Positions 32,454-62,736 of a stretch of DNA of 64,000 nt are shown here, one piece after another. Positions within the stretch are counted from its first letter, which is position 1, and every line of letters begins with the position of its first letter. The notes beneath the pieces are model-generated. The model was not told the origin of the DNA. It saw only the letters and a list, made by a program, of their open reading frames with translations, and did not search any database. The position numbers were made by a program, and so were the translations under genes. This DNA comes from Terriglobia bacterium. Its GTDB lineage: Bacteria > Acidobacteriota > Terriglobia > Bryobacterales > Bryobacteraceae. The DNA lies in assembly GCA_020073345.1 (NCBI GenBank), contig JAIQFI010000029.1, forward strand, positions 1-64,000, in the 5' to 3' direction.

Positions 32454-32467
32454 GATTCAACTCCTTT

Positions 32468-32971: not shown

Positions 32972-32982
32972 GTTCTCGTTTC

Positions 32983-41819: not shown

Positions 41820-43841
41820 CTAGTTGGGTAGGCGGAAGGCGATAAACTCGGCCTCGTACCCGGTACCCCCGATGGCTACCACGATGTATTGCTTTCCGTT
41901 CAGCATATAGGTCATCGGTGTACCAGTTTGTCCGGCCGGCATGAACACGGCCCCGGCATCTCTGCCGGATGCCTTGTCGTAGGCGCGCAGCATCGCGCCC
42001 TTCTGGCCTGATGCGTTCGTGAAGAAGTCCCTCTCGCCCGCGATCACCAGAGTCTTGGTCACCAGCGTACCGATCACTCCCGGCCGGCCGGTGCGCGGGA
42101 TCGTCAACCCCTTGAGCGCTGGATGGTTACGGATGTTATCCGGGGTTTCCCCGTGGGCCACCTGCCAGAGGATCTCGCCACGGTTCAGGTCGATGGCGTT
42201 GATGCTCGCATACGGCGGTTTGACCAGCGGCAGCCCTTGTACGGTCAAGCTTGCGATGTCGGTCTCGGTACCACGGGCTGCAGCGGGCCTCGTATCCTGG
42301 GCTGCATCCGCACCCGCGCCCCGCGTGGTCCGCGCACCAGTCCGCGCCGAACCTTGGATATAGGCTTCATCCGTCATTCTTGGATCCCCAGGAACCAGTC
42401 CCAGCGTGCTGATCGACCTCTGCGAAAACACGTACGCGATGTGGGTTTCAGGATCATAAGACCCGCCCGGCCAGTTGGTCCCACCGCCCGCGGTCGCCAT
42501 CGCCAGCGTCCCCAGAGGACCATCCACCTTGCTCACTACCGGCGGAGTAAAGACCGGTCCGAGCTTAAAGAGTGACGCAAGTTTCACCGCCTCGGCCCGA
42601 AGCGCCGGCGTGAAATCGATCAGGTCCTCGAGCTGGAATCCCTGCCGATCGTAGGCGGGAGGCTTACTCGGAAACGGCTGCGTGGGCGAGTACCATTCCC
42701 CTGGCACGCTACCCTTCTCCACCGGCTTTTCCTCGATCGGCCAAATCGGCTGGCCAGTCACGCGATTGAACACATATAAGAAGGCTTGCTTCGTGGGCTG
42801 CGCGACCGCCTTCACGGTTTGGCCGTTGATGGTGATGTCAACCAGAATCGGGGCGCACGGAATGTCCATGTCCCAGATTCCGTGGTGCACCAGCTGGTAG
42901 TGCCACTTGCGTTGGCCGGTTTTCAGGTCCACCGCGACCAGGCTCTCGCCGAACAGCCCATTGCCGGGACGATGGCCTCCGTAATAGTCGCCGGTCGGCA
43001 GTTCCACGGGAAGGTAGACCATCCCCAGTTCTTCATCCACGCTGATCTGGCCCCAGACGCCGGCATTGCCGGTGTAATCCGCGGAGTCTTTTTCCCAGGT
43101 GTCGTAGCCGAACTCACCGGGGCGCGGGATGGTGTGGAAAATCCACAGGCGCTTGCCGGTCTTCACGTCGAACCCGCGGACGTAGCCTTTGACGTTGGTC
43201 TTGCTGCGCGGCACTCCCCCCGAGCGGTGCGCGGCGCCGACAATCACGGTATCGCCGGCGACGACGGGCGTCGCGTGCAATCCGACCTCGCCTGTGACCA
43301 GGTCGATCTGCTGATCGTCTTCGAGTTTCAAATCGACGACTCCGCCTTGCCCGAAGCCGGGAACGGGAGCGCCGGTCTTGGCATTCAGCGCAACCAGGCG
43401 ATAGCCGGGCGTGACGTAGAGAATCCTCTCCTCGCGGCCATCGGTCCAGTAGGCCAGGCCCCGACCGGATAGTTGTCGCGGAGCCGCACTGCCTCGCGCG
43501 CCTTCTTTCTCGCCGTGGACCCATAGAAGCTCGCCCGTGGCAGCGTCGAGAGCGACGACGGCCCGCCGCGTTCCCGCTGTGGCGTAGAGGACGCCGTTTG
43601 CCATCAAAGGCGTCGTTTCCAGGTTGAACTCGGCGCGCGGGCCGACGTTGGTGGTCTTGAAACGCCAGGCGATCTCGAGTTTGTCGAAATTGCTCGCGCT
43701 GATCTGGTCGAGCGGTGAGTAATGCGTATTCCCGAGGTCGCCGCCGTAAGTCCGCCACTCGCCATTCTTGGCGCCTTGCTGGGCGGCGGCGGGCAACGCC
43801 ATCAACCCCCACGCCAACACCGTACCCAAAATCCGTTTCAT
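41820..43841 (-). CDS. PQQ-dependent dehydrogenase, glucose-dehydrogenase-like
   Basis: 673 residues from ATG 43841 (MKRILGTVLAWGLMALPAAA, signal peptide), preceded by AAGGAGG about 10 nt upstream; the open frame extends further 5' without support. It shares the branch of the gene at 32983: HHGIWDMDIPCAPILVDI (about 340), PIEEKPVEKGSVPGEWYSPT, and GGGTNWPGGSYDPETHIAY. A serine/alanine-rich insert near 520-555 is unlike its relative. Minus-strand, 43 nt before the MBL gene, so probably leads the MBL / DUF1592 / DUF1552 / ankyrin set. Confidence 0.82.
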   Translation of the reverse strand: MKRILGTVLAWGLMALPAAAQQGAKNGEWRTYGGDLGNTHYSPLDQISASNFDKLEIAWRFKTTNVGPRAEFNLETTPLMANGVLYATAGTRRAVVALDAATGELLWVHGEKEGARGSAAPRQLSGRGLAYWTDGREERILYVTPGYRLVALNAKTGAPVPGFGQGGVVDLKLEDDQQIDLVTGEVGLHATPVVAGDTVIVGAAHRSGGVPRSKTNVKGYVRGFDVKTGKRLWIFHTIPRPGEFGYDTWEKDSADYTGNAGVWGQISVDEELGMVYLPVELPTGDYYGGHRPGNGLFGESLVAVDLKTGQRKWHYQLVHHGIWDMDIPCAPILVDITINGQTVKAVAQPTKQAFLYVFNRVTGQPIWPIEEKPVEKGSVPGEWYSPTQPFPSKPPAYDRQGFQLEDLIDFTPALRAEAVKLASLFKLGPVFTPPVVSKVDGPLGTLAMATAGGGTNWPGGSYDPETHIAYVFSQRSISTLGLVPGDPRMTDEAYIQGSARTGARTTRGAGADAAQDTRPAAARGTETDIASLTVQGLPLVKPPYASINAIDLNRGEILWQVAHGETPDNIRNHPALKGLTIPRTGRPGVIGTLVTKTLVIAGERDFFTNASGQKGAMLRAYDKASGRDAGAVFMPAGQTGTPMTYMLNGKQYIVVAIGGTGYEAEFIAFRLPN

Positions 43842-43873
43842 CGAGGTTCCCCCTCCTTGTGCCACTAGCCAGT

Positions 43874-44740
43874 TTAGAACCAATCGAACTTCTTGAGCAC
43901 GAGGAGCAATCCCACGGTAGTCGTCACCATCAGGCCCGCGGCGACGGCGGTCGCGTGCGGTGAACTGGCCCACGGCAGTCCCATGGTGTTCATCCCGTAG
44001 AAGCCGGAGATGACGATCGACGGCAGGGCGATGGTTCCCAGCACCGTCAGCACCTTCATGACCTGGTTGGTCCGGTTCGCGACGCTCGAAAGATAGATAT
44101 CCATGGCTCCCGCGAGCAGATCGCGGTGCATCTCCACCATTTCCACGGCGCGAGCCAGGTGATCATACACGTCCCGCAGAAACGGCCAAAGGTCGCGCTG
44201 GATCAACTCGGTCTCCAGCCGCTGAAGGTGACTCGCGACATCGCGCATGTTCGTCAGAACGCGCCGCAGTTCGATCAACCCGCGCTTGAGTTCGAAAATG
44301 CGCTGGACCGTGTCGGGCGAGGGCTTCTCGAGAACCTTATCCTCGATGGCGTCGATAGCGTCGTTGAACCAATCGAGCACGGGCGCGTAGGCATCGACGG
44401 TGGCGTCCGTAATTTTGTAGAAGAGCTGGTCCGGGCGAGAGCGATCGGCGGACGCATGAAGCTTGTCTACGTTGCTCCGAAGACTGGGGCATTCACCCTC
44501 CTGAACAGTGATCAGGTAATCGCGACCCAGGAATAAATCGAAATCGGTGATCTCCAGCTCGCCCGCGGCATTGATGTGCACGGGCTTCAGGACGACAAAG
44601 ATGTAGTCCTCGCCGTCCTCCACTTTGGCCCGCTGGTTTCGATGGCGGCAATCCTCGATGTGCAGTGGGTGCAGGTGGTAGCGTTCCGCTAACGCGTCCA
44701 GCTCCGGGTCATTCGAGTCACGCAAGTCATGCCAGATCAC
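43874..44740 (-). CDS. corA: CorA-family divalent cation transporter
   Basis: 288 residues. The soluble N-terminal funnel domain (about 1-220; HPLHIEDCRHRNQRAKVE) is followed by two C-terminal membrane helices. The loop before helix 2 has the selectivity motif GMN in FYGMNTMGLPW (about 249). CorA proteins carry Mg2+ or Co2+; a short protein like this is within the family range. It lies 32 nt upstream of the PQQ gene in the same direction, but the function is unrelated. Confidence 0.88.
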   Translation of the reverse strand: MIWHDLRDSNDPELDALAERYHLHPLHIEDCRHRNQRAKVEDGEDYIFVVLKPVHINAAGELEITDFDLFLGRDYLITVQEGECPSLRSNVDKLHASADRSRPDQLFYKITDATVDAYAPVLDWFNDAIDAIEDKVLEKPSPDTVQRIFELKRGLIELRRVLTNMRDVASHLQRLETELIQRDLWPFLRDVYDHLARAVEMVEMHRDLLAGAMDIYLSSVANRTNQVMKVLTVLGTIALPSIVISGFYGMNTMGLPWASSPHATAVAAGLMVTTTVGLLLVLKKFDWF

Positions 44741-44854: not shown

Positions 44855-47800
44855 TTAGAAGAAGAAGCGGGCGCCTAGCTGAATCAGACGCGGGTAGTTC
44901 GCCTGGGTTGTAATGAACCCGAACGATCCGTTGGTGAACGTCGTGTTCGGCCCGTTGAACGTCGGGGTATTGGTGAAGTTGAGCGCCTCGGCCCGGAACT
45001 GCGCTTTGAATCTCTCTCCTATCTGGAAGGTCTTGAAGAGGGAGACATCGAAGTTCACCTGACCCGGACCTCGCATGGAGATAACGCGGCCGACATTGCC
45101 AAACGTAAACTGGGGCGCGAGCGAGAAGGCCTTAGGGTTGATCCAGCCGTCCAGCCGCTGGGCGAATGGAGCGTCCACTTCAGGCGAGATCCCAGTCGCA
45201 TTGGGCCGTTGTGTGCTGGTGCCCAATACGCTGTTGTTGTTGGGCTGTGAAATCGCCAGCGGATATCCCGACTGGAGTACGCTGGTCACGTTGATCGACC
45301 ATCCGCCCGCAATCATGCCTAGGACCCGGTTCTTGGCGAGCATCGGCTTTCCGGGACCGAATGGAAGCTCGTAGGTACCCGCCAGCGAGAGGCGATTGGG
45401 CGTGCTGAAAGTGGACAGTCCGTATTCTGAAGACAGATCGTAGGAGTTCTGCGGACCGGCCGGAGCGCTGTTGAAATTGTTGCCGGTGGTTCCGTAACCC
45501 TGATCGATCGTTCTTGACCACGTGTAAGTGCCGAGTACGGTCAGCCCTTGGGAGAACCTACGCTGAATCTTAAAGTAGGCTGCCGTGTAGAACGACTTGT
45601 TCGTTCCGGACGGACTCAAGGTTACTTTCGTATATTGCGGATACGGCAGGAGCAGTTGGGAACGAGCAATGGTCGGATTCCCTACCGCGACCGCCCCGCC
45701 TTGCTGATACATCGGATTGGCTACACTCTGGTTCAACGCCGAACCCAGAGAGAGGTGCGCGGGATCGAGCTGATCGATATTGCGTCCGTCCTGCTGCAGG
45801 GCAACACCTTTCGATCCGATAAACCCCGTCGACACAACCAACGATCCCGGAAGCTGCCGTTGCAGGTCCAAAGAATATTGCTGGACGTAGCCGCCCGATC
45901 GCATGCTATTGTCCGGAGTCGTAATGTCCTGGCCGATTCCGGCGAGCCCTCCCTGTGAGTTGCCTAACGGAGAAAGAAATCCGTTGGGATAGGGATTCGC
46001 CAAAGTGGCAGACGGAGTGAAGTTGTTATTGATGGAGGAAACGATAGGAGTCGATTGAGAGTAACCCAGTGTACTTTGGAAGGAGAAGGACAGCGGCGCC
46101 CAAAATACGCCGTATCCCCCCCGAATCACGGTGCCTGGAGTGGGGGTGTAGGCGAAACCAAACCTGGGACCGAGCTTCACCGATAAGGGATTCATGCTCG
46201 TGGTGGGATTGCCGTTGACGCCGGCGTATAGGACAGTCCCAAAGATCTTCGGATCGGAGACGGTCGCTTGCAGCGGACTGGAAGCCTTCCCGTCGAACCC
46301 GACGATGTATGAGTTGCTAGCCTCTGCCGGACCAGTCTCATGTTCCAGCCGGAGCCCAAAGTTGACGGTCAGCTTCGGCGTGACGCGGAAATCGTCCTGA
46401 ACGAAAAAACCGTAGTAGTTCACAAAATCGTAAAACTTCGTTCCCACCGTAAGGCTGCCGCTGGTGGGGTAGCCCAGAAGAAGCGTAGCCATACTGGAAC
46501 CTGTTCCGGCGGTGGTTTTCTGCGGTGTGGCTCGCGTGAAGACATCCGTGAAGCCGAAACTGCTGGGCCCGACGCCGGGCGTCCCGTCATGGTGCAGCAG
46601 CCTCCAGTCGAATCCGGCCTTCAAATTATGCTTGCCCCAAAATTTGGAAGCGGTCACGTTGGCGCTCTTCGACCAGTAGACATTCTGAGTGGTGTTGCCG
46701 CCGCCGAAGCTCTGCATGTCCCCCATGGTGATGCTGGGGAACGCCGGGAAAATGGTCGCGTCCGCCACGGAACTCGAGAAACCTAGCTGGGTAATATCGA
46801 ATCCGCGGCTGATGGGTGGTGTGAAATTGGGAAAGCGGTTGAATCCGTATCGCGCCGTCACCACCATGGTGGGTGAAAGCGTGAAGGTGGAATTAACTTG
46901 AGTCGCGTCCACCTTCCGGTAAATCACGCCCTGGTTGGGCGACGCGATCTGATTCGGGAACCAGCGGTTACTGGGCTCCCGGCTCCCGTAGTGCAAATAG
47001 GAGGCCGAGGCTCGCCACCACGAAAACAGTTGGTGGTCGAGTTTCCAGGTGGTCTGATCCGCCCGGTTGAAAGCCGTTACGCTGGCGTTATAGTTGGGAG
47101 CACCATAAAACGGTGTGACGTCGTTCGGGAGCGGATAATACGATGCCAGAGCAACGCCAATGGGGCTTAGTTGTGCAGTCGGGATCTTGTTTCCGACAAA
47201 CGGCAGACGTGCGCCCGTAGTGAGATTGGTCGACAACGGATCGTAAATGACCTGTTGGGCTCCCGAGCGCGTCGTCGAGAGCGATTGCGAAAAATCTCCA
47301 ACGCGTTCCAGGTCGGTGGGGACGGAGAGGCGGGTTCCCGACGCATCGTACTGGCGATAGGCTTCCCCGGTCGCGAAGAAGAAGGTCTTGTTCCGACCGT
47401 CATAGACTTTCGGGATCACCACCGGTCCGCCGAACGAGCCGCCGTAATTCTTGAAGGGCTGTTCCAGGCGCGGCAGTCCGGCTCGATTCGAGAAGAAATT
47501 GTTGGCCACCCAATCGGTTTCCCGGAGGTATCCGAAAGCGCTGCCGTGAAGCTGGTTGGTGCCGGATCTGAGGAACACATTGAAGGTTCCTCCGCCGGTC
47601 CGCCCCATCTCCGCGTCGTACGTGTTGGCTTGCACCTTCATTTCCTGGACCGCTTCCTGCGAGGGGATGATCACCGCGCGGTTCGTGGAGTCAGTAATGG
47701 AGACGCCATCCAGGGTGTAGTTATTGGACCGTACCGGGCCCCCGGCGATCGATATCTGCGACGAGCCGGACTGATCCTGCATGCGATTGAATTTCGGATT

Positions 47801-48280
47801 GCCGACCTGCACCACGGATTCCGATAGTTTCGACAACATGAACGGATTCCGCCCCAGGTTCGGCAGATCGACCAGCTTCTGCGAATCGATGACCTGGCCG
47901 GTGGAGGCGTCCGCGGTCTGAAGCAGAGACACTTCGGCCGTGACGTTTACCTGATCGGAAACCGCGCCCAGCTCCAGCGTCAGATCCAGCGTCACGGCGG
48001 TCTGTGTGGCGACAACTACGCCGGCGTGCTCCAGCCGCTTGAATCCGGGCGCCTCGGCCGCGATGCTGTAGGTGGCCGGAGTAACGGAGGCGAACGTATA
48101 TTCGCCCAGTTCGTTGGTCAGTGTCGAGCGCTTGGCGGATGTTCCTTGATCGACGATCTCAACCTTCACCGTCGGCACGGCTCCGCCGCTCGGATCCTGA
48201 ATCCTTCCGCGCAGCGAGCCTACAAATGATTGGCCGTATGCCAGCGCGGCCAGAATCAATCCCAACAATGTAATTCTCAT
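44855..48280 (-). CDS. Oar-like TonB-dependent receptor with carboxypeptidase-regulatory domain
   Basis: 1141 residues. Signal peptide (MRITLLGLILAALAYGQS), then a carboxypeptidase-regulatory-like beta-sandwich (about 22-100; GRIQDPSGGAVPTVKVEI and TLTNELGEYTFASVTPATYS), plug domain (about 110-230) and a very long barrel ending in LGARFFF. This Oar-like layout is abundant in Acidobacteriota and is thought to import glycans or peptides, often working with secreted hydrolases. No SusD-like partner is nearby. It lies 160 nt downstream of the aminotransferase gene. Confidence 0.9.
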   Translation of the reverse strand: MRITLLGLILAALAYGQSFVGSLRGRIQDPSGGAVPTVKVEIVDQGTSAKRSTLTNELGEYTFASVTPATYSIAAEAPGFKRLEHAGVVVATQTAVTLDLTLELGAVSDQVNVTAEVSLLQTADASTGQVIDSQKLVDLPNLGRNPFMLSKLSESVVQVGNPKFNRMQDQSGSSQISIAGGPVRSNNYTLDGVSITDSTNRAVIIPSQEAVQEMKVQANTYDAEMGRTGGGTFNVFLRSGTNQLHGSAFGYLRETDWVANNFFSNRAGLPRLEQPFKNYGGSFGGPVVIPKVYDGRNKTFFFATGEAYRQYDASGTRLSVPTDLERVGDFSQSLSTTRSGAQQVIYDPLSTNLTTGARLPFVGNKIPTAQLSPIGVALASYYPLPNDVTPFYGAPNYNASVTAFNRADQTTWKLDHQLFSWWRASASYLHYGSREPSNRWFPNQIASPNQGVIYRKVDATQVNSTFTLSPTMVVTARYGFNRFPNFTPPISRGFDITQLGFSSSVADATIFPAFPSITMGDMQSFGGGNTTQNVYWSKSANVTASKFWGKHNLKAGFDWRLLHHDGTPGVGPSSFGFTDVFTRATPQKTTAGTGSSMATLLLGYPTSGSLTVGTKFYDFVNYYGFFVQDDFRVTPKLTVNFGLRLEHETGPAEASNSYIVGFDGKASSPLQATVSDPKIFGTVLYAGVNGNPTTSMNPLSVKLGPRFGFAYTPTPGTVIRGGYGVFWAPLSFSFQSTLGYSQSTPIVSSINNNFTPSATLANPYPNGFLSPLGNSQGGLAGIGQDITTPDNSMRSGGYVQQYSLDLQRQLPGSLVVSTGFIGSKGVALQQDGRNIDQLDPAHLSLGSALNQSVANPMYQQGGAVAVGNPTIARSQLLLPYPQYTKVTLSPSGTNKSFYTAAYFKIQRRFSQGLTVLGTYTWSRTIDQGYGTTGNNFNSAPAGPQNSYDLSSEYGLSTFSTPNRLSLAGTYELPFGPGKPMLAKNRVLGMIAGGWSINVTSVLQSGYPLAISQPNNNSVLGTSTQRPNATGISPEVDAPFAQRLDGWINPKAFSLAPQFTFGNVGRVISMRGPGQVNFDVSLFKTFQIGERFKAQFRAEALNFTNTPTFNGPNTTFTNGSFGFITTQANYPRLIQLGARFFF

Positions 48281-48442: not shown

Positions 48443-49606
48443 TCAGGACATTACCCTGTCACAGGCAGCCTGGAATTTCTTCATTTCTTCGGCGGTGCCC
48501 ACCGTAACCCTCACCTTCGTGGGCCAGGCCGGCCATATGCGGCCGATGATCACCTTGTTATCAGCCATGGCTTGGGAAAAGTCCGCGCCCGGCCGGCCGA
48601 CCTCCATCATGAAAAAGTTCGTCTCGCTGGGGATGTACTTGATATTCTTCTTCTCCAAGTACGCAAACGTATCCTCGCGAATGCGCTTGTTAAGGGCCCG
48701 CCGCTCAGGCACCAGGCTCTTTACCTTGAGGCTGGCCAGCGCGCAGGCAGCGCCGGTCACAGGGACCCGGCCGTTCCCGTATGGATTCATTTTGCGGAGC
48801 AGATCCGGCCGTCCCAGGGCGAATCCCGCTCGCAGTCCCGCCATGCCGTAGATCTTCGAGAACGTGCGCAACACCACCACGTCCTTGCCCGCCGCCACCA
48901 GGTCGCTGGAGGGCTGCGCGTTTTCCGAGAAGTGGATATAGGCCTCGTCCACCACCACCACCGCGTCCGGCTTCTTCTTGGCGAGCAGATATTCGATGTC
49001 CTTGCGCGAGGTGAGCGTACCCGACGGGTTGTTGGGATTGCAGACGTAGTACGTACCCGCGTCCGGATCGGCCTTTATCATCGCCTCAACATCGTGCGAG
49101 TAATCCGGGCGAAGCGGAACGCCTGTGACCTTCGAGCCGATGAATGCGGGGGCGCCTCCGCCGTACCCGGGATTCGCCATTGTCCAGCTCCGCGTCGGCG
49201 AAGTGAAAGCGCACGAGGCTCGATGCAGCGGATCGCTCGATCCGGCGAAAGTAGCCACGTGGTCCTCCGGGACGCCTTCCACCGAGGCAATCATCTTAAG
49301 CAGGTCGTCACCTTCGCCGAAGGGCGAATACCTCCAGCCGTGGGGAGCGATCTTCGCGATCGCGTCGAGTCCTTCGGGATGCGGCCCCATGGGATTCTCG
49401 TTGGAACTGATGCGCACCACGTCCGGGTCATTGGCGCGGCGGTTGCCTCGCTTGCTCTGGCGTTCGGCGTCTTGGGCCATTGCAAATTCGTTGTAGAACG
49501 GCATCGTCGCGCCGGCGGTCAACAGCGTCGCGATCCTGCCGAACTGGCGGCGTGAAAAGCCCCTTTGCAGAAACTCCTGGGCTTTCGGAACAGTGTTCGT
49601 GGTCAT
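48443..49606 (-). CDS. Tat-exported HisC-like class I/II aminotransferase 1
   Basis: 387 residues. The N-terminal FLQRGFSRRQFGRIATLL (SRR at 18-20) is a twin-arginine signal with a hydrophobic stretch to AMAQ (42-45). The body is a fold-type I PLP enzyme of the histidinol-phosphate aminotransferase branch: NPNNPSGT (190-197), VVDEAYIHF (219-227) and K251 in TFSKIYGMAGLRAG as the PLP lysine. Export with cofactor already bound would explain use of Tat. Ribosome site AAAGGAGA. It lies downstream of the DctA-like symporter gene and is paralogous to the gene at 52288. Substrate unknown. Confidence 0.85.
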   Translation of the reverse strand: MTTNTVPKAQEFLQRGFSRRQFGRIATLLTAGATMPFYNEFAMAQDAERQSKRGNRRANDPDVVRISSNENPMGPHPEGLDAIAKIAPHGWRYSPFGEGDDLLKMIASVEGVPEDHVATFAGSSDPLHRASCAFTSPTRSWTMANPGYGGGAPAFIGSKVTGVPLRPDYSHDVEAMIKADPDAGTYYVCNPNNPSGTLTSRKDIEYLLAKKKPDAVVVVDEAYIHFSENAQPSSDLVAAGKDVVVLRTFSKIYGMAGLRAGFALGRPDLLRKMNPYGNGRVPVTGAACALASLKVKSLVPERRALNKRIREDTFAYLEKKNIKYIPSETNFFMMEVGRPGADFSQAMADNKVIIGRIWPAWPTKVRVTVGTAEEMKKFQAACDRVMS

Positions 49607-49730
49607 CGGAAGTCTCCTTTAGTTTTGGCGGCTAACGGCGCGGCAACGCCGTATGGCATCACTCGGCGGGGAGTCCAACATCCGGGGGCAGCGGAGCCTA
49701 TCCCGGACAAACAAACCCGGCAGAAGGCGC

Positions 49731-50975
49731 TCAGCGCGCGGTTTGCGCGAACGCTTCTTCCATGGCCGGTACTTCTTCCGGAAACTTCACACCTTCCCAT
49801 CGCGCTACAACAGCGGTTGCCAGGCAGTTGCCCAGCAGATTGACGGACGTTCTCGCCATGTCCATCAGTTCGTCAATTCCCAAAATCACTGCGATCCCTT
49901 CCAGCGGCAAGTTGAAAGACGCCAGCGTTCCCGCCAGAATCACCAGCGAGGCGCGCGGAACCCCGGCCACTCCCTTGCTGGTCAGCATCAGGGTCAAAAC
50001 CATCAGCAGCTGCGTTCCGAACGAAAGATTCACACCGGCCGCCTGCGCGACGAACACGCTCGCCAACGACAAATACAGCGTGGAACCGTCCAGGTTGAAG
50101 CTGTAGCCCGCGGGCAGCACTAGCGCGACGATGTGCTTGGGGACGCCGAAGCTCTCCATGTTCTCGAGCGCTCGGGGCAAGGCAGCTTCGCTCGATGTGG
50201 TGGAGAACGCGATCAAGAACGGCTCGCGCACGTGCGCGTAAAACTTTTTCAAGGGGATGCGGGCGATCACCGCCACGGTTCCCAGCACCACCACTACGAA
50301 GAAGACCAGCGCGCCGTACAGCGTCAATACCAGCTTGCCCAGATTGAGCAAAACCGCCGGCCCCTTCTCACCCACAGTGGCGGCCATGGCGCCGAATACT
50401 CCGATGGGTGCAAAATACATCACGTAGTTGGTGTAGCGGAACATCACCTCGGCCAGTGATTCGCAGAATTCGACTACCGGACGGGCTTTGAACCCGATGG
50501 CCGTGCAGGCCGCGCCGAACAGAATCGAGAAAACCACGATCTGCAAGACTTCGCCGCGCGCCATCGCGTCGAAAATGCTGGTTGGAATCGTATGTTCGAG
50601 AATCTGGGACAGCCCCGTTCCGGTCTGCGCCACGCCCGGAGCCGCGCCTTTTTCCAACTGAACTCCGATTCCCGGCTTCACCAGGTTCACGGCGCCCAGC
50701 CCGATGAACAACGCCAGAGTCGTCACCACTTCGAAGTACAGCAGCGCTTTGCCGCCGATCCGGCCCACAGTCTTGATACTGCCGGCTCCCGCGATTCCCG
50801 AGACAAGCGTCGCGAAAACCAGCGGGGCGATGATCGACTTGATGAATCGCAGAAACATCGTCCCTAGGATTCTCAGTTCCTTGGCGGGACCGGGAAGCAA
50901 CGCGCCGAAGACCATGCCGGCCACAACCGCCAGCAGGATCAGTGTTGTCAGGGATGGGCGTTTCAGCTGAGTCAT
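49731..50975 (-). CDS. DctA/GltP-family dicarboxylate or amino acid:cation symporter
   Basis: 414 residues from ATG 50975 (MTQLKRPSLTTLILLAVVAG). Upstream frames overlap the SulP gene and are not coding. The family pattern includes FLRFIKSIIAPLVFATLVSG, the serine-rich hairpin AFSTTSSEAALPRALE (about 280), PAGYSFNLDGSTLY, and SKGVAGVPRASLVILAG. These elevator transporters bring glutamate, aspartate or C4-dicarboxylates in with Na+ or H+. Placed between two exported aminotransferases, it is a candidate uptake route for their amino acid or keto acid products. Confidence 0.88.
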   Translation of the reverse strand: MTQLKRPSLTTLILLAVVAGMVFGALLPGPAKELRILGTMFLRFIKSIIAPLVFATLVSGIAGAGSIKTVGRIGGKALLYFEVVTTLALFIGLGAVNLVKPGIGVQLEKGAAPGVAQTGTGLSQILEHTIPTSIFDAMARGEVLQIVVFSILFGAACTAIGFKARPVVEFCESLAEVMFRYTNYVMYFAPIGVFGAMAATVGEKGPAVLLNLGKLVLTLYGALVFFVVVVLGTVAVIARIPLKKFYAHVREPFLIAFSTTSSEAALPRALENMESFGVPKHIVALVLPAGYSFNLDGSTLYLSLASVFVAQAAGVNLSFGTQLLMVLTLMLTSKGVAGVPRASLVILAGTLASFNLPLEGIAVILGIDELMDMARTSVNLLGNCLATAVVARWEGVKFPEEVPAMEEAFAQTAR

Positions 50976-50986
50976 CGGATCATCCC

Positions 50987-52258
50987 TTAAGGCACCTGCA
51001 AGTCGGGGATTCGCTCGCCCGCCGTGAAGAAACGTTGGTAGAGCGCGCGAGCGGCGTAAAACGAGCAGCCGATCGCGATGGCGATCACTGCGTTGAATGC
51101 GACGACGGAGACAGCGGTTCCGAGAAAAGCCCCGGCGTCCACACGATTCATCTTTTGGAGTCTGCGCCACGCGCTCCAGTCGAGCAGGCAGAGTCCCATC
51201 CAGGCCGTGACCCCGGCCAGGGCCGCCACGGGAATATGCGAAATCACACTGTTGCCGTAGCGCAGCATGGCAATCAGCAACAGCGCGTGGAAGATGTTTG
51301 AAACGCTGGTGGTACCGCCGCAGCGCACCACGGCCAGGCTGCGGGCCGGAATCCCCACGCTCAGAGGCGCGCCGAACATGCCCGAACAAATATTGGCAAT
51401 CCCATACGCACCCAGTTCGGCATCCGCGTCCGCCACCTTGGATCTCCGGTGCCGCCCGCGAAAATGTTCCACCACGCGCGACGTGATCAGGATGTTCACC
51501 GCCACCACAAACGCCATAACGAACCCTGAAGGTACGACCGTGAAGACGTCGCGCGGGCTCCAGGCGAATCCAACGAAGGAGGGCATCCCGGACCCAAGAG
51601 AACCGATCTCCGTTCCATGAAATCCGATGACTTTCGCGACCGCCAGCGCCGCCAGGATTCCTAAAAGAGGAGCCGGGGCACGCGGAATCCAGTGAGCCGA
51701 CGCCGTAGCCGCCGTCACTACGCAGAGGCCCGCTAGCGCAGGAGCCCAATGCGCGTTTCCCAGATTCCCGAGAATCCCGGCAAGCTGCTGCAGCGCCGAG
51801 CCCGAGGCGGCGACTCCGCCGACTCCGAGGATCGTATCGAGCTGCGAGATCACCATCATCGCCCCGATGCCGCAGGAAAATCCGGTCACTACCGAATGCG
51901 GCACACGCGCGATATGCCGGCCCAGACGCAAGACACAGAACACCATTAGAATGACAGCCGCCACCACGGAGATTTTGGCGGCTCCGCCGATCCCCTGCTC
52001 CCGCACGGCTTGCGCCACGAACGGCACCGTGACGCTGCCGGTTCCGCCGATCAGGACCGGATTCCGGCCCAGCACCGACGTCACCGGCGACGTCAGAATC
52101 GAGGTAAAAATACCAAGAACGGGAGGCAACCCCATCAACGATGCCATCGCTAATCCATAGGGCAACGCAATCAGCGCCGCTACCGCGCCGCCCGACAGAT
52201 CCCCTCCGAATCGCTCCCAGTTGTAGCTGGGATGCTTGAATAAAGAACGCAGCTTCAA
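50987..52258 (-). CDS. SulP-family anion transporter without STAS domain
   Basis: 423 residues, about 12 membrane helices. N-terminal DLSGGAVAALIALPYGLAMA, LIGGTGSVTVPFVAQAVREQ and ANICSGMFGAPLSVGIPARS are SulP/SLC26 features. The protein ends soon after the transmembrane core, with no C-terminal STAS domain (usual length with it is about 550). SulP members carry sulfate, bicarbonate or carboxylates; the substrate here is unclear. It lies 11 nt upstream of the symporter and 29 nt after aminotransferase 2. Confidence 0.85.
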   Translation of the reverse strand: MKLRSLFKHPSYNWERFGGDLSGGAVAALIALPYGLAMASLMGLPPVLGIFTSILTSPVTSVLGRNPVLIGGTGSVTVPFVAQAVREQGIGGAAKISVVAAVILMVFCVLRLGRHIARVPHSVVTGFSCGIGAMMVISQLDTILGVGGVAASGSALQQLAGILGNLGNAHWAPALAGLCVVTAATASAHWIPRAPAPLLGILAALAVAKVIGFHGTEIGSLGSGMPSFVGFAWSPRDVFTVVPSGFVMAFVVAVNILITSRVVEHFRGRHRRSKVADADAELGAYGIANICSGMFGAPLSVGIPARSLAVVRCGGTTSVSNIFHALLLIAMLRYGNSVISHIPVAALAGVTAWMGLCLLDWSAWRRLQKMNRVDAGAFLGTAVSVVAFNAVIAIAIGCSFYAARALYQRFFTAGERIPDLQVP

Positions 52259-52287
52259 ACTGTCACCTTTCGCTTTTTCCGAGCCGT

Positions 52288-53439
52288 CTACGCCGCCATT
52301 ACTTTCACGAACGCCGTTTTGAACTTGGCCATCTCCTCGGGAGTTCCGATTGAAACGCGCACGTGGGTCGGCCAGACGGGCCAGATGCGGCCGATATACA
52401 CTTTCTCCTTGCGGAGCGCCATGATCACCTGGTCGCCGGGTTTGCCGACGTCCACCATGATCTTGTTGGACACGGAAGGCACGTACTTGATGCCGTGCTT
52501 GTCGAAAAACGCTTGCACATCATTGCGCGTGTCGCCCATGATCTTGCGGCGCTCGGGAATCACCGTCGCCGACTTCAGACTGGCCGTGGCGCCGGCCATG
52601 CCGGTGATGGGCAAGGCTCCTGAGCTGTACGGCGTAATCTTGGCCAGCAGATCCGGCCGCCCGATCGCCGCGCCCGCACGCAACCCGGCCATTCCGTAAA
52701 TCTTGGAGAAGGTCCGCAGGATGACGATGTCCTTGTCCTTGGCCACCAGGTCCGTCCGCAGCCGTGCGCCCGAGATGTGCGTATAGGCTTCGTCGAGCAG
52801 GATGATCGCGCCGGCCGGCTTATTTTCCACCAGCCAGTCGATATCCGAGTCCGGCGTCAGCGTCCCGCTGGGATTGTTGGGGTTGCAGATATAAATCAGC
52901 CCGGCGTTGGGATCGGCCGCCGCCATGGCCTTCACGTCGTGCGCGTAGGTGTTCTTATCGAGCGGAACCTTGATCACCTTCGCCCCGATGAACTTGGCTG
53001 CGTTTCCGCCTGATTCGTAACCAGGGTCGGCCATGATGAAGCTCTTGGTCGGCGACGTGAAGCCCAGCGCGGCCTGGTGCAGCGGCGCACTGGAACCGGC
53101 GAACGGCCTGACGTAATCCGGCTTCACTCCTGATTGTGACGCGAGCGTTTCCTGGAACTCGTCAGTCAGTTCGTAGGAGTAGCGGCCCCCCATCTTGACC
53201 ACGTTGTGAATGGCCTCAATCGCCTCGGCGCATGGTCCGAGCGGATTCTCGTTCGCGTTGATCTTCACTGCGTCGGCGGGCATCCCGCGGACTTGTGAAA
53301 GCTGCGCCATAGCCGATTCGTTATAGAACGGCAAAGTGGTTCCAGCGCCGATGAGCGCGGCGATCCGGCCGAAACTCCGGCGGGAGAATCCACGCTGCAG
53401 GAAATGGGACTGTTGTTCGTTGGTTAAGACCGGGATCAT
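52288..53439 (-). CDS. Tat-exported HisC-like class I/II aminotransferase 2
   Basis: 383 residues from ATG 53439 (MIPVLTNEQQ), with GAGGAG 7 nt upstream; a TTG at 53454 is a less likely start. It has the same build as the gene at 48443: Tat signal FLQRGFSRRSFGRIAALIGA (SRR at 19-21), then NPNNPSGT, LLDEAYTH and the PLP lysine K246 in TFSKIYGMAGLRAG. Identity between the two is high throughout, pointing to duplication. First gene of the minus-strand operon with SulP, symporter and aminotransferase 1. Transcribed from a strong promoter with a structured leader. Confidence 0.85.
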   Translation of the reverse strand: MIPVLTNEQQSHFLQRGFSRRSFGRIAALIGAGTTLPFYNESAMAQLSQVRGMPADAVKINANENPLGPCAEAIEAIHNVVKMGGRYSYELTDEFQETLASQSGVKPDYVRPFAGSSAPLHQAALGFTSPTKSFIMADPGYESGGNAAKFIGAKVIKVPLDKNTYAHDVKAMAAADPNAGLIYICNPNNPSGTLTPDSDIDWLVENKPAGAIILLDEAYTHISGARLRTDLVAKDKDIVILRTFSKIYGMAGLRAGAAIGRPDLLAKITPYSSGALPITGMAGATASLKSATVIPERRKIMGDTRNDVQAFFDKHGIKYVPSVSNKIMVDVGKPGDQVIMALRKEKVYIGRIWPVWPTHVRVSIGTPEEMAKFKTAFVKVMAA

Positions 53440-53745
53440 GCTTGTTCTCCTCAAGAATTTTGAAAAACGGATTTCGGCTACGTGGCTGCCCGCGCATCAA
53501 AGATGGCGCGCAGAGTGGGAACTCCGGCTATGGGATCGTGCGCTCAAGCAGCCATTCGAGCTGCATTCGAACACACAAACCGCGTTACGGATTTAGAAGG
53601 GTCTTGCAGGGCAAGGTCCCTCTCGATTGAATCCAGGTGCCGTTACCTTGGCACGTTTCACTCCAACCGGGAGGAAAACCCCGACGCCTGCTAGGCGGCA
53701 GGAACTAACGAGGAAAGATTACCAGCCGTACGCCGATGTTGTCAA
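53440..53745 (-). promoter_or_regulatory. Promoter and structured 270-nt leader of the aminotransferase operon
   Basis: On the minus strand TTGACA (53745-53740), 18 nt and TAATCT (53721-53716) form a good sigma-70 promoter, placing the start near 53709. The leader to ATG 53439 is noncoding and has several hairpins: CCTGC/GCAGG (53687-53702, overlapping an alternative CGCC/GGCG), GTGCC/GGCAC (53637-53654) and CTTGC/GCAAG within GGG/CCC (53599-53620). The alternative pairings near the 5' end are suggestive of a switch. It does not match the known riboswitches I tried to compare (cobalamin, SAM, TPP, glycine, c-di-GMP). Function unknown. Confidence 0.45.
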
Positions 53746-53771: not shown

Positions 53772-54383
53772 TTAGCGGTGATGCTCCGCGCGCAATCGTT
53801 CCAAGTCGCTGGAGCTCAAGGGCAAACGCGGTGTGATCAGTTGCGATCCCGAAAGCGCGGATTTGGCTACGCCCTCGCGGCCATGATCGTGCGAATTGGT
53901 GAGTATGTGCACAAGCTCGTGCGCTACCACGCGTCCTAAGGCGCGCCCCAGCAGCTGCTCTCCTTGCGCATAATCGCCGCCAAACATCGCGGACCTCATC
54001 GACGCCGTCACTTGGTCGCAGGCCACTTCGCTAAAAGGCAGCACCGCTCCGTCGCTGGTGTGAGTAAACGCCAGAGGACCGCGCTCGTCGTAAAGAACCG
54101 GATTTGGCTCCAGGATGCATCGTCCGTTAAACCGCACCACCACCAGGTTTTCGTTGTCGCCCGCGTCGGTCGCGCCATCCGTTCGCTCGAGGGCCCGCCA
54201 CTTGAGCGTGAGCCCGGAATCCTTCAGAATTCCAGCCACTTCCTGCTGCATCTCGGAAATAGAGCGCGACGAGTGAGGTCCCTGGAAATCGAACACGATG
54301 GTTAATTTCTCAGACCCGGCGGCCTGCAGACAGCCTGCGGCAAACATGGCGATCATCGATAGACGGCACAGTACCTGGTGCAT
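53772..54383 (-). CDS. Lipoprotein with HExxH zinc-peptidase-like motif
   Basis: 203 residues from ATG 54383 (MHQVLCRLSMIAMFAAGC); the frame is open further to 54470. The lipobox AAGC (C18) suggests a lipoprotein. The body has VVAHELVHILTNSHDHG (about 146-162), a HExxH motif with further histidines nearby that could supply the third zinc ligand. The rest (VFDFQGPHSSRSISEMQQEV, VVVRFNGRC) is not a known peptidase family. Similar secreted proteins seem widespread in Acidobacteriota. It is transcribed toward the aminotransferase promoter and away from pdxS. Confidence 0.6.
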   Translation of the reverse strand: MHQVLCRLSMIAMFAAGCLQAAGSEKLTIVFDFQGPHSSRSISEMQQEVAGILKDSGLTLKWRALERTDGATDAGDNENLVVVRFNGRCILEPNPVLYDERGPLAFTHTSDGAVLPFSEVACDQVTASMRSAMFGGDYAQGEQLLGRALGRVVAHELVHILTNSHDHGREGVAKSALSGSQLITPRLPLSSSDLERLRAEHHR

Positions 54384-54685: not shown

Positions 54686-55570
54686 GTGTATCTCTCCGAC
54701 CAGTTCCGTCTGAAAATAGGCTTGGCCGAGATGCTCAAAGGCGGCGTGATTATGGACGTCACGACGGCGGCCCAGGCGCGCATCGCTGAAGAGGCCGGAG
54801 CTGCCGCGGTCATGGCGCTCGAACGGGTGCCCGCCGACATTCGCAAGGAAGGCGGCGTCGCCCGCATGGCCTCCATTCGCGTCATCCGCGAAATCATGGA
54901 CACTGTCTCCATCCCGGTGATGGCCAAGGCAAGAATCGGCCATTTTGCGGAAGCACGGGTTCTGGAGGCATTGGGCGTCGATTACATCGACGAGAGCGAG
55001 GTGTTGACCCCGGCCGACGAAGAGCACCACATCCACAAGCGCGATTTTCAAACGCCGTTTGTTTGTGGAGCGCGCAACTTGGGCGAAGCCTTGCGCAGGA
55101 TCGCCGAGGGTGCCGCCATGATCCGCACAAAGGGAGAAGCCGGCTCTGGCAACATCGTCGAAGCGGTGCGCCATATGCGGACCATCGTCAAGGAGATGAA
55201 GCAGCTTACGGTGCTCGGCAAGGAAGAATTGGTGCACGAATCCAAAAAGCTCGCCGCTCCGCTGGAGCTGGTGGAGTGGGTGGCCGCAAACGGGAAGCTC
55301 CCGGTGCCTAATTTCTCAGCGGGAGGGATCGCGACGCCAGCCGACGTGTCGCTGGTGATGCACTTAGGCGCGGAGGCCGTATTTGTGGGCAGCGGGATTT
55401 TCAAATCCGAGGATCCCGAAAGACGCGCCCGCGCGATCGTGAAGGCAGCTACGTACTACGCCGATCCGCTCAAGCTGCTGGAAGCCAGTTCGGACCTCGG
55501 GGAAGCGATGCGCGGCTTGGACGTCGCGACGCTGCCGGAATCGGAACTGCTACAAACTCGGGGGTGGTAA
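54686..55570 (+). CDS. pdxS: Pyridoxal 5'-phosphate synthase, PdxS subunit
   Basis: 294 residues, the normal size of PdxS, which joins ribose 5-phosphate, glyceraldehyde 3-phosphate and ammonia into PLP as a dodecamer. Features: [49 protein letters not shown] (lysine of the first site, about 82), [16 protein letters not shown] (lysine of the second site region) and [13 protein letters not shown]. Start GTG 54686 after AAGGAGA. pdxT follows immediately. Confidence 0.97.
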
Positions 55571-56128
55571 ATGAAGACCGTAGGAGTGCTGGCGCTCCAG
55601 GGCGATTTTGACGCGCATCGCCGGGCCCTGGAACGCGTAGGCGCGTGCGCGCTGGAAGTTCGCACGGCCATTGAAATGGATCACTGCGACGGCCTGGTCC
55701 TGCCGGGAGGCGAGAGCACCACTATGCTGAAACTGTTGGCGCAGGAGAACTTGTTTGAGCCCTTGCGACGCTTTGGGCACACCCGCCCGATTTACGGCAG
55801 TTGTGCCGGTGCGATTTTACTGGCTCGCACGGTCGCGGGCCCAGCGCAGAAATCTTTAAACCTGCTGGACATATCCGTGGAACGAAATGCGTATGGCCGG
55901 CAACTCGATAGCCGCATCGCCCGGATTCCTACCGCCGAACACGGCGAAATCGAAGCCGTCTTTATTCGTGCGCCGATCATTCGCCGGGTCGGGGATTCCG
56001 TCAGCATCGTGGCCATGTATGACGGCGACCCCGTGTGGGCCGAACAAGGTCCTCACATGGTGACGACGTTCCACCCGGAGCTCACGTCAGACTCCTGCGT
56101 CCATCGGAGGTTCATGGACAAGTTGTAG
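55571..56128 (+). CDS. pdxT: Pyridoxal 5'-phosphate synthase, PdxT glutaminase subunit
   Basis: 185 residues. The triad amidotransferase supplies ammonia to PdxS. GGESTTMLKL (about 47), GSCAGAILLA (nucleophile cysteine about 78) and TFHPELTSD (histidine and glutamate, about 168-170) make up the active site. ATG starts directly after the pdxS stop, so both are translated together. The only PLP synthesis genes in the window, a few hundred bases from two PLP-dependent aminotransferases. Confidence 0.96.
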   Translation: MKTVGVLALQGDFDAHRRALERVGACALEVRTAIEMDHCDGLVLPGGESTTMLKLLAQENLFEPLRRFGHTRPIYGSCAGAILLARTVAGPAQKSLNLLDISVERNAYGRQLDSRIARIPTAEHGEIEAVFIRAPIIRRVGDSVSIVAMYDGDPVWAEQGPHMVTTFHPELTSDSCVHRRFMDKL

Positions 56129-60968: not shown

Positions 60969-60974
60969 TTGACC

Positions 60975-62736
60975 ATGTCTAACATCAAGGCCATATTGGC
61001 CGCTTGCGTCATCGCCACTATCGCTCTGATATCCACCGTCACCGCCCAGCAGCCGCGTGCGGTGGACGCTAAAGTTCTCACCACCGCCGGCACGGCCAAA
61101 GACGCCATGCCCGGCACATGGCTCACCTACGGCCACAGCCAATCGGAACAGCGCTACAGCTTGTTGAAGCAAATCGACGAGACCAACGTCGGCAAGCTGG
61201 GATTGGCCTGGTCGGCGCCGCTCACCGCGGCGGGAGGCCGTGGTGGCACCGAAGGCACGCCTCTCATGTGGAACAACACGATCTACCAAACGATGGACAA
61301 CAGCATCGTGTACGCGCTCGACGCGCGCACCGGCGAACAGAAGTGGATGTACGATGCCAAGATTGATCCCATCACGCCGAGCCATATGTGCTGCGGCACA
61401 CACAACCGCGGGCTCGCGGTCTACGAGGGCAAGCTCATCCTGGCTGCCAACGACGCCCGGCTGATCGCCCTCGACGCCAACAGCGGCAAGGAGTTGTGGC
61501 AAAGCAAGGTCGCGGACATCAATCAGTACTACTCATTCACCATCGCGCCCCGCATCGCGGGCGACAAGGTGATCGTCGGTGTGGGCGGCGGCGAATACTT
61601 CATTCGCGGCTTCTTCGCGGCGTACAACCTCAAGGACGGGTCGCTCGCCTGGAAGTTCCACACGGTTCCGCCGGCCCCGGGCAAGCCCTTTGAGGACAAG
61701 GATCAGGAAAAGGCATCCAAGACCTGGGTCGGCGACTGGGCGAAGTACGGCGGCGGCGGCTCGGTGTGGGACGGCTTGGTGTACGACCCCGATACGAACC
61801 TGGTGATCGCTGGCACGGGTAACGCTGAACCGTGGCCGCAGGAAATGCGCGGCATCCCGAAATCGGAGTGGGGTAAGTGGGACAACCTCTATACCTGCTC
61901 GATCGTGGCAGTGGATGCGAGCAGCGGCAAGTTGAAATGGTATTACCAGACGGTCCCCACCGACAGTTGGGACTTCGATTCCGTGGGCGGCTTCATCATG
62001 GCCGATGTCCAGATCGAAGGCAGGACGCGCAAGGTCATCATGCAGGCTCCCAAGAGCGGCGTATTCTACATCCTGGACCGCACCAATGGACAGTTCATCT
62101 CGGCCGAGCCCTTCGTCCCGGTGAACTGGGTTACGGGCTTCGATAAGAAGAACAACGGCAAGCCGATCATCAATCAGGACGCCTACTACGATCAGACGAA
62201 TTCGGTGGTGATCTACCCGGGCGGCGGCGGCGCACACAATTGGGCGCCGATGTCCTACAACCCGAACGCCGGGTTGGTTTACCTTCCCTACTCCGCGGGC
62301 AGTTACACCTTCAACGCCGCCAAGGAACCCGATCCCAAGGCCGGTGGGGGCGCGCATGGGTTGGGTCGCGGTGGTCAGGATAAGAGGACGACCCCCATGC
62401 CGATCTGTTGGCGGCGGCACGCTGACCACGGCCAGCAACCTCCTGTTCCAGGTTGCGGGCAATACGCTGTACGCCTACAAGGCGGATACGGGTGACGAAC
62501 TGTTGGCGCTGCCGTTCAACCTCGGTGGTGGGGCTCCTCCGATCACCTACATGATCGACAACACGCAGTACGTCGGGTTTGCGACCGGCACCCAGTTCCT
62601 GGCTATGAAGGTCGGTGGCACGGCTCAAATGCCTCTGGCTCCGCCGCCGGGTCAGTTTGGTCGAGGTGGCAAGGGTGGTCCGCCGCCCGCAGCGCCAAAA
62701 TCCGCGGCTCCGCCGGCCCAAGAGCCGCACAAGTAA
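60975..62736 (+). pseudogene. PQQ-dependent dehydrogenase, alcohol-dehydrogenase-like, frameshifted
   Basis: Signal peptide MSNIKAILAACVIATIALIS (TTG 60969 is an alternative start), PQQ repeats, vicinal cysteines in HMCCGTHNRG (about 138), DSWDFDSVGG and GGGGAHNWAPMSYNP. At about 62343-62410 the frame changes: the first frame runs on into a non-homologous tail ending at 62495, while the C-terminal repeat (SVGGGTLTTASNLLFQVAGN) continues in the +1 frame to a proline-rich end at 62736. Joined, the protein would be about 587 residues, the size of its paralogue at 30669. Probably a recent mutation or an assembly error. Confidence 0.75.

What the first reader, a model, noticed from the sequence alone, without database searches (positions are those of the whole stretch)
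48443..53745. Two Tat-exported PLP aminotransferases flank a carboxylate/amino acid symporter and an anion transporter
Both proteins have a twin-arginine signal followed by intact HisC-like catalytic motifs, which implies transamination outside the cytoplasm. They are close paralogues and enclose a DctA-type symporter and a SulP transporter in one direction with short gaps. An amino donor or product could be brought in by the symporter. PLP synthesis genes lie beyond the operon promoter. A periplasmic transamination unit of this kind is not one I know as a described system.
Basis: partly seen in the sequence, partly recalled or inferred. Interest (0 to 1): 0.75.

Follow-up and report, generated by a model that had tools for sequence, protein, structure and literature searches.

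The report
Periplasmic transaminase linked to anion transporter
A soil bacterium carries genes for amino-group-swapping enzymes that appear to be shipped outside the inner membrane, and in many related bacteria one of these enzymes is encoded beside an outer-membrane receptor, a peptidase-like protein and an anion carrier, suggesting that nutrients are chemically changed between the two membranes before being taken in.

Summary
In detail: two PLP aminotransferases (AT1, AT2; 53% identical) with Tat-type signals flank an acidic-amino-acid-type symporter (SDF) and a STAS-less SulP transporter, all on the minus strand. The interpretation needs three corrections. (1) Tat-exported periplasmic transamination is already described: the nearest characterised family is PtaA of Pseudomonas, not HisC; a canonical HisC sits beside hisD elsewhere in this genome. 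(2) The symporter, AT1 and the neighbouring PdxST genes are not part of what is conserved (SDF within 4 kb of the AT in 0 of 69 related loci). AT2 and SulP form a tight pair: in 250 genomes of the order, 92 of 104 SulP matches lie directly downstream of an AT on the same strand. An Oar-type outer-membrane receptor, and often a secreted HExxH protein of metzincin-like predicted fold, stand with them; both are present here (44855-48280, 53772-54383). I found no description of this unit in the papers searched. Most likely mechanism (inferred): the receptor brings an amino compound into the periplasm, the Tat-exported transaminase converts it to a 2-oxo acid, and SulP carries an anion across the inner membrane. 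Substrate and direction are unknown.

The parts
53772..54383 (-). Secreted HExxH protein (203 aa, signal-like start), metzincin-like predicted fold, no Pfam family over its cut-off
   Evidence: (H155 E156 H159 H167, C89, C122 invariant in 23); near the AT in 27 of 69 loci
52288..53439 (-). AT2: PtaA-like PLP aminotransferase with Tat-type signal (383 aa, ATG 53439)
53305..53439 (-). AT2 Tat-type signal SRRSFGRIAALIGAGTTLPFYNESAMA|Q (cleavage point inferred)
50987..52258 (-). SulP-family transporter without STAS domain (423 aa, TTG start)
   Evidence: directly downstream of an AT in 92 of 104 matches in the order
49731..50975 (-). SDF/DAACS symporter with acidic-amino-acid binding residues; addition seen in the window only
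   Evidence: 0 of 69
48443..49606 (-). AT1: second aminotransferase with Tat-type signal (387 aa), from a separate clade of genus paralogues
49475..49606 (-). AT1 Tat-type signal SRRQFGRIATLLTAGATMPFYNEFAMA|Q (cleavage point inferred)
44855..48280 (-). Oar-type outer-membrane receptor (CarboxypepD_reg + OMP_b-brl_4 barrel, 1141 aa); TonB dependence recalled from such families, no plug domain matched
   Evidence: near the AT in 42 of 69 loci
54686..56128 (+). PdxS and PdxT (PLP synthase), neighbour on the other strand; link to the unit not conserved

Best explanation
A periplasmic transaminate-then-import route. An Oar-type outer-membrane receptor brings an amino compound (a peptide or amino acid) across the outer membrane; a secreted HExxH protein of metzincin-like fold may trim it; a PtaA-like transaminase, folded with PLP in the cytoplasm and exported by Tat, swaps the amino group against a 2-oxo acid in the periplasm; a STAS-less SulP carrier moves an anionic product or co-substrate across the inner membrane. 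In this genome a second Tat-type transaminase (AT1) and an acidic-amino-acid symporter have been added to the cluster, where the symporter could recover the glutamate or aspartate made when the cofactor is recycled. Shown here: genes, signals, catalytic residues, conserved linkage. Inferred: export, reaction, substrate, direction and order of steps.
For: Invariant twin-arginine signals and catalytic residues in 36 homologues with two TatC genes. AT-SulP: 92 of 104 SulP matches directly downstream of an AT, same strand, median gap 56 bases; 96 of 98 genomes with that SulP have an AT. Receptor near the AT in 42 of 69 loci and HExxH protein in 27 of 69, in several gene orders; where SulP is present and there is room, 24 of 27 and 21 of 27. 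Receptors beside ATs are 41-57% identical to the window's (matches of 200 aa or more), while the window receptor's best paralogue in its own genome over most of its length is 34%. Receptor-SulP-AT order with a divergent SulP occurs in Blastocatellia/Pyrinomonadaceae records and G329 (L097, L102, L149). The symporter keeps D394, R397, T398, N401 of GltPh. Precedent for a Tat-exported periplasmic transaminase: PtaA.
Against: No substrate, activity or localisation data. SulP is absent from 68 of 164 order genomes with an AT match and from 12 of 39 loci with 4.5 kb on both sides, so such transaminases also occur without it. Among the 23 genus genomes searched only G000 and G007 show the AT-SulP pair; G016 has the SulP with no AT on its 14.6-kb contig, and L147 has SulP and receptor without an AT. 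SulP substrates cannot be read from sequence. The genomes are related, so counts are not independent events. The 38% identity limit for counting receptors was set after seeing the identities.
Confidence: 0.42

Rival explanations
1. Tailoring rather than uptake: like PtaA on pyoverdine, the AT converts an amino group of an endogenous exported metabolite (for example a metal chelator) in the periplasm; the receptor is the re-uptake receptor and SulP handles an anion of that pathway.
For: PtaA is the closest characterised family (AT2 362, AT1 332 bits; all 36 aligned homologues match it at E up to 1e-50) and works on an exported siderophore whose iron complex returns through a TonB-dependent receptor (passages).
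Against: Below the PtaA cut-off of 500 bits; no NRPS condensation domain in the genome (0 matches; NRPS-independent chelators not searched); among the 45 largest neighbour families, looked at by eye only, none was recognised as siderophore biosynthesis.
Confidence: 0.22
2. AT and SulP are co-regulated but act separately: the AT serves periplasmic amino-acid turnover and SulP is a pH, bicarbonate or sulfate carrier needed in the same conditions.
For: ATs of the same family occur without SulP in many loci (12 of 39; 68 of 164 genomes).
Against: 92 of 104 strict adjacency, and a divergent SulP (32%) with the same partners in another class (L102, L149).
Confidence: 0.18
3. Organosulfur use: the AT acts on cysteate or cysteine sulfinate; transamination of the latter yields an unstable oxo acid that releases sulfite, and SulP takes up the sulfur oxyanion or sulfo-oxo acid. 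The acidic-amino-acid symporter would take the same substrates.
For: SulP carriers are named for sulfate and the pairing of AT and SulP is very tight; the symporter keeps acidic-amino-acid residues. The chemistry is recalled, not from a call.
Against: SulP carriers cover many anions (recalled); score far below the sulfate permease model (148.5 against 380.45 bits); no sulfur gene was recognised by eye among the 45 largest neighbour families.
Confidence: 0.1
4. Ordinary cytoplasmic HisC-like aminotransferases with a fortuitous N-terminal extension, next to unrelated transporters.
For: HisC-like fold and motifs.
Against: Below the hisC cut-off (196 and 194 against 277); canonical hisC beside hisD elsewhere; RR invariant in 36 of 36 aligned.
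Confidence: 0.04

Closest known systems
PtaA, periplasmic transaminase A of Pseudomonas (NCBIfam NF051461)
   Same: HisC-like PLP transaminase, Tat-exported with its cofactor; second-best NCBIfam model for both window ATs, and all 36 aligned homologues match it at E up to 1e-50
   Different: Score below its cut-off; no NRPS condensation domain in this genome; here tied to SulP, receptor and HExxH protein
PRK09105 aminotransferase subfamily (NCBIfam NF006580)
   Same: Both ATs score above the curated cut-off
   Different: A family name without a stated function; says nothing of the gene unit
PA2531 of P. aeruginosa, listed among Tat substrates as an aminotransferase (PMC6085387, passages)
   Same: Aminotransferase with a Tat signal, credited there to that work
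   Different: Homology to the window ATs not tested here; no such gene unit in the passages seen
PvdN of Pseudomonas
   Same: Tat-exported periplasmic PLP enzyme
   Different: Different reaction (decarboxylation that keeps the amino group); recalled to be another fold subtype
SulP family (PF00916): sulfate permease, BicA, DauA
   Same: SulP transmembrane domain
   Different: No STAS domain here; scores far below each named model
Oar-type outer-membrane receptors of Acidobacteriota (name recalled)
   Same: CarboxypepD_reg domain and OMP_b-brl_4 barrel
   Different: The ones beside ATs resemble each other more than the genome's other copies do

Membership tests
PRK09105 subfamily (NF006580) | Score at least 444 bits | tested here: met
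   AT1 464.8, AT2 475.5 bits; 465.2 and 476.1
PtaA (NF051461) | Score at least 500 bits | tested here: not met
   AT1 331.6, AT2 361.9 bits
PtaA (NF051461) | Tat signal and PLP lysine | tested here: met
   RR and K246 invariant in 36 rows
PtaA (NF051461) | Acts on pyoverdine (NRPS product) | tested here: not met
   No condensation domain in the genome; only a proxy for the substrate
HisC (TIGR01141) | Score at least 276.55 bits | tested here: not met
   196.2 and 193.8; the genome's hisC scores 299
Tat substrates | N-terminal S/T-R-R-x-hydrophobic motif, hydrophobic stretch, AxA (motif recalled) | tested here: met
Tat substrates | Tat-dependent export | not testable with these tools
   needs a reporter fusion
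SulP (PF00916) | Sulfate_transp domain over cut-off | tested here: met
   173.4 bits against 23.2
SulP sulfate permease (TIGR00815) | Score at least 380.45 bits | tested here: not met
   148.5 bits; no STAS domain matched
DAACS (PF00375) | SDF domain over cut-off | tested here: met
   394.6 bits against 27.9
DctA (NF002461) | Score at least 513 bits | tested here: not met
   410.9 bits
GltP (NF008440) | Score at least 638 bits | tested here: not met
   372.2 bits
Acidic amino acid DAACS | GltPh D394, R397, T398, N401 | tested here: met
   alignment to 3v8g and 9bgz; role of the residues recalled
TonB-dependent receptors | TonB plug domain | tested here: inconclusive
   Pfam gave CarboxypepD_reg and OMP_b-brl_4, no plug model
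Metzincin peptidases | Fold | tested here: inconclusive
   Model pLDDT 88.6; Foldseek top MMP-2 E 1.2e-4, TM 0.48/0.57, rmsd 7.2
Metzincin peptidases | HExxHxxGxxH spacing (recalled) | tested here: not met
   Third invariant His lies 8 residues after the second (H159, H167)

The most novel reading that the evidence does not exclude
A self-contained outer-membrane-to-cytoplasm nutrient route in which amino compounds are deaminated by transamination in the periplasm and enter the cell as 2-oxo acids through a SulP carrier: receptor, peptidase-like protein, Tat-exported transaminase and carrier form one conserved unit, common in Bryobacterales and present in another gene order, with a divergent SulP, in a second acidobacterial class.
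Probability: 0.35. Interest if true: 0.78.

Novelty: new variant of a known kind. Interest (0 to 1): 0.6.

Why it matters
Transamination is generally taken to be cytoplasmic (recalled); PtaA is the described exception, and its review says that PtaA also occurs in species that make no pyoverdine and may serve other periplasmic pathways. The unit found here gives such a transaminase a partner receptor and carrier and so offers a concrete, testable second function, in a soil group whose nutrient uptake is poorly known. It also sharpens the open question, raised in the same review, of how a cofactor locked into an exported enzyme is recycled: the acceptor 2-oxo acid must come from, or return to, somewhere, and one of these transporters is the obvious candidate.

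Tried and rejected
Known RNA: no Rfam match at gathering threshold in 8 loci and only two sub-threshold hits in the window region, the dauA one antisense to AT2. Leader: the 332 bases upstream of AT2 have no blastn match at E up to 1 in 89 other loci apart from one 24-base hit. Promoter and terminator scans gave chance numbers. PLP-synthesis link: not conserved. Recent tandem duplication of AT1/AT2: not supported by the tree (quick method; long branches such as L091 and L100 flagged; the SulP label needs 13 changes on it). In that call I set three labels by hand: L038 and L039 as SulP-linked (SulP seen by tblastn, missed by my ORF picker) and window AT1 as not linked. Aromatic amino acid genes downstream of the unit in seven loci (only prephenate dehydrogenase was tested; the rest by eye) lie on the other strand with shared flanks and were read as synteny of near relatives. 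Plasmid search gave one 37% hit. No Foldseek search beyond the PDB was made.

Literature: listings (20 of 113 papers listed; 0 papers; 0; 0; 0; 1, a Leptospira paper, not opened); one search was badly worded ('sulp' matched sulphur words) and told nothing. Opened, passages only: PMC6206403 and PMC6085387. The original PtaA paper was not held, so its content is taken from the review.

Rows dropped and limits: of 78 distinct loci, nine distant ones at 27-29% identity (L104-L112) were left out, giving 69. The 69 include near-identical genomes and two contigs of one MAG (L055, L097); 46 SulP-positive loci include three with a divergent SulP (L055, L097, L102). My ORF picker missed the AT of L075, so Tat counts and tree lack it. 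In some searches the tool scored at most 7 candidates a genome, in 35 and 36 at most 4, and the AT list was cut, so 92 of 104 is a lower bound. Neighbour families were named by eye except where a call is cited.
Full report
What is there. The window lies on contig C79 of a 6.23 Mb, 98-contig genome; AT2's closest named relatives are Bryobacterales/Solibacter-like Acidobacteriota (titles). On the minus strand, in transcription order, stand: a secreted 203-aa HExxH protein (53772-54383), AT2 (52288-53439), a SulP transporter (50987-52258), an SDF symporter (49731-50975), AT1 (48443-49606) and an Oar-type outer-membrane receptor (44855-48280). Gaps are 332, 29, 11, 124 and 162 bases (from the coordinates).

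The transaminases. Both ATs carry Aminotran_1_2 and score above the NCBIfam cut-off for PRK09105 (AT1 465, AT2 476 against 444). PtaA, the pyoverdine periplasmic transaminase, is second (332 and 362 against a cut-off of 500) and hisC is below its cut-off (196 and 194 against 277). All 36 rows of alignment A2 match these three models at E up to 1e-50, with best E-values of 8e-170, 4e-125 and 7e-65. They are the only two of 8 matches in the genome over the PRK09105 cut-off. A canonical HisC (299 bits) with no twin-arginine start stands beside hisD on contig C13. The AT2 model (pLDDT 90) fits 3ly1, a putative HisC-like aminotransferase, best.

Export. In A2 (36 rows) both signal arginines (R20, R21), E41 and A45 of the signal, and PLP-site residues including K246, D216, Y219, R254 and R361 are invariant (their roles are recalled from HisC-like enzymes). 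RR was found in the first 100 aa of 84 of 85 ORFs of 330 aa or more, the window's two included; the exception, L039, is cut at a contig end, and in L072, L089 and one of two ORFs of L091 the RR found does not look like a Tat motif. A crude Tat rule of 85 ATs but 19 of 410 other conserved ORFs of the same loci, several of which look like real Tat proteins; the eight misses include cut or over-long ORFs. The genome has two TatC genes. Export itself is untested.

The conserved unit. Of 69 loci fetched from named genomes by AT2 (nine distant hits left out), a SulP lies within 1.5 kb in 46 (three of them divergent), the receptor (at least 38% identical, at least 200 aa) within 4.5 kb in 42, the HExxH protein within 5.5 kb in 27 and the SDF symporter within 4 kb in 0. 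Of the 39 loci with at least 4.5 kb on both sides, 27 have SulP, 25 the receptor, 21 the HExxH protein and 20 all three. SulP is on the AT's strand in 46 of 46, the receptor in 38 of 42, the HExxH protein in 22 of 27. Orders differ: HExxH-AT-SulP-receptor in four loci (L035-L037, L042; the window follows this with SDF-AT1 inserted), HExxH-receptor-AT-SulP in 13, receptor on the other strand in four (L059, L062, L068, L085), and receptor-SulP-AT in the Blastocatellia/Pyrinomonadaceae records L102 and L097 and in G329 (L149). In L102 the SulP carries a STAS domain. Twelve of the 39 lack SulP; they include four Caulobacter records.

Reverse test. In 250 genomes of the order (drawn by the tool), SulP gave 104 matches in 98 genomes; 92 lie 16 to 447 bases downstream of an AT on the same strand, AT upstream in 92 of 92, median gap 56. 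I read five of the other twelve: L146 has the AT cut by the contig end next to SulP, L145 an AT fragment at the contig end about 1.6 kb away, L148 a SulP cut by the end, L147 a receptor but no AT, L144 neither. Of the 250 genomes, 96 have both, 68 AT only, 2 SulP only (G481, which has that AT fragment, and G545), 84 neither (Fisher p 2e-21, which ignores relatedness). Against breadth: in a 396-genome phylum sample SulP at E up to 1e-60 was found only in the own genome and AT in 35; and of 41 near relatives 14 have an AT and 5 this SulP at 55% identity or more, other SulPs being 28% or less.

Receptor. It has CarboxypepD_reg and OMP_b-brl_4 domains and no plug model was matched; 'Oar-type' and TonB dependence are recalled. 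Such receptors are numerous (68 matches of the window's receptor in its own genome, pieces of one gene counted apart), so chance neighbourhood had to be weighed. The window receptor matches its genome's paralogues at 26-36% over long stretches (best by score 34%; a 299-aa contig-edge piece reaches 40% and a 58-aa piece 52%), but receptors next to ATs elsewhere at 41-57%, while further receptor-like genes in the fetched loci match at 24-29%. So the linked ones look like one subfamily; no tree was made, and the identity limit was set after seeing these values.

HExxH protein. It matches no Pfam family over its cut-off (DUF5700, a putative zinc peptidase, matches 11 of 23 members at E up to 0.5, best 0.0097). 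H155, E156, H159, H167, C89 and C122 are invariant in 23. The model (pLDDT 88.6) finds matrix metalloproteinases first in the PDB, best E 1.2e-4, TM 0.48/0.57, rmsd 7.2, four matches at E up to 0.001. The third histidine is spaced differently from metzincins (motif recalled), so I call it metzincin-like.

Symporter, AT1 and PdxST. The symporter aligns best with an aspartate transporter (9bgz) and keeps D394, R397, T398 and N401 of GltPh, with D405 replaced by N (numbers counted on the alignment). It fails the DctA and GltP cut-offs. A 70-71% homologue lies about 4 kb from an AT on the other strand in L123 and L125, and a 40% one in L117. In the tree AT2 sits in a starred set of 13 rows, 11 SulP-linked; AT1 sits in starred sets of unlinked genus paralogues, nearest L129 at 75%. 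So SDF-AT1 looks like an addition in this lineage. No PdxS was found in the 69 loci; L126 has one about 8 kb away.

Mechanism. I think the unit imports an amino compound after periplasmic transamination (0.42). Other contexts of the same AT family point to extracytoplasmic amino-acid and peptide breakdown: in L085 the AT stands beside an Oar-type receptor, an M19 dipeptidase, a Rid-family protein with a signal-like start and an amine oxidase with a Tat-like start; in L124 a histidine/aromatic amino acid lyase and an Lrp/AsnC regulator adjoin the receptor and AT. These are single contexts, not counts. A pyoverdine-type role is unlikely: no condensation domain in the genome.

Known or new. Periplasmic transamination by a Tat-exported PLP enzyme is known: PtaA, and PvdN as another exported PLP enzyme (passages of PMC6206403); PA2531 is listed among Tat substrates as an aminotransferase (passages of PMC6085387). 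For the AT-SulP-receptor unit I found nothing in searches 16 (20 of 113 papers listed), 22, 51, 60, 72, 73, 75, 78 and 85 of the open-access library, which lacks most subscription journals. Hence: new variant of a known kind.

Noticed in passing
L085:5750-14816: AT of the Caulobacter-like branch flanked by an Oar-type receptor, M19 membrane dipeptidase, a Rid-family protein with a signal-like start and an amine oxidase with a Tat-like start: looks like an extracytoplasmic deamination cluster.
   Followed up: partly
L124:3347-10360 (L126 shares neighbour families 74 and 2): Histidine/aromatic amino acid lyase and an Lrp/AsnC regulator next to a receptor and AT transcribed divergently.
   Followed up: partly
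window 53305-53439 and 49475-49606: The end of the Tat-type signal (LPFYNE..A.AQ) is strikingly conserved for a signal peptide in many of the acidobacterial homologues; reason unknown.
   Followed up: no
L102:8098-9777: The SulP of the Blastocatellia version carries a STAS domain, while the window's lacks one.
   Followed up: partly
G434:C1:345030-346184, G582:C123:2563-3714, G626:C99:34158-35330: AT matches with one in-frame TAG in three order genomes; pseudogene, sequencing error or misread start, not examined.
   Followed up: no
G000 whole genome: 68 matches to the Oar-type receptor in one genome, pieces counted apart: a large expansion.
   Followed up: no
window 23020-24561, 30669-35010, 41820-43973, 60969-62495: Several ORFs that look like PQQ-type dehydrogenases cluster in this window (by eye, no family search).
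   Followed up: no
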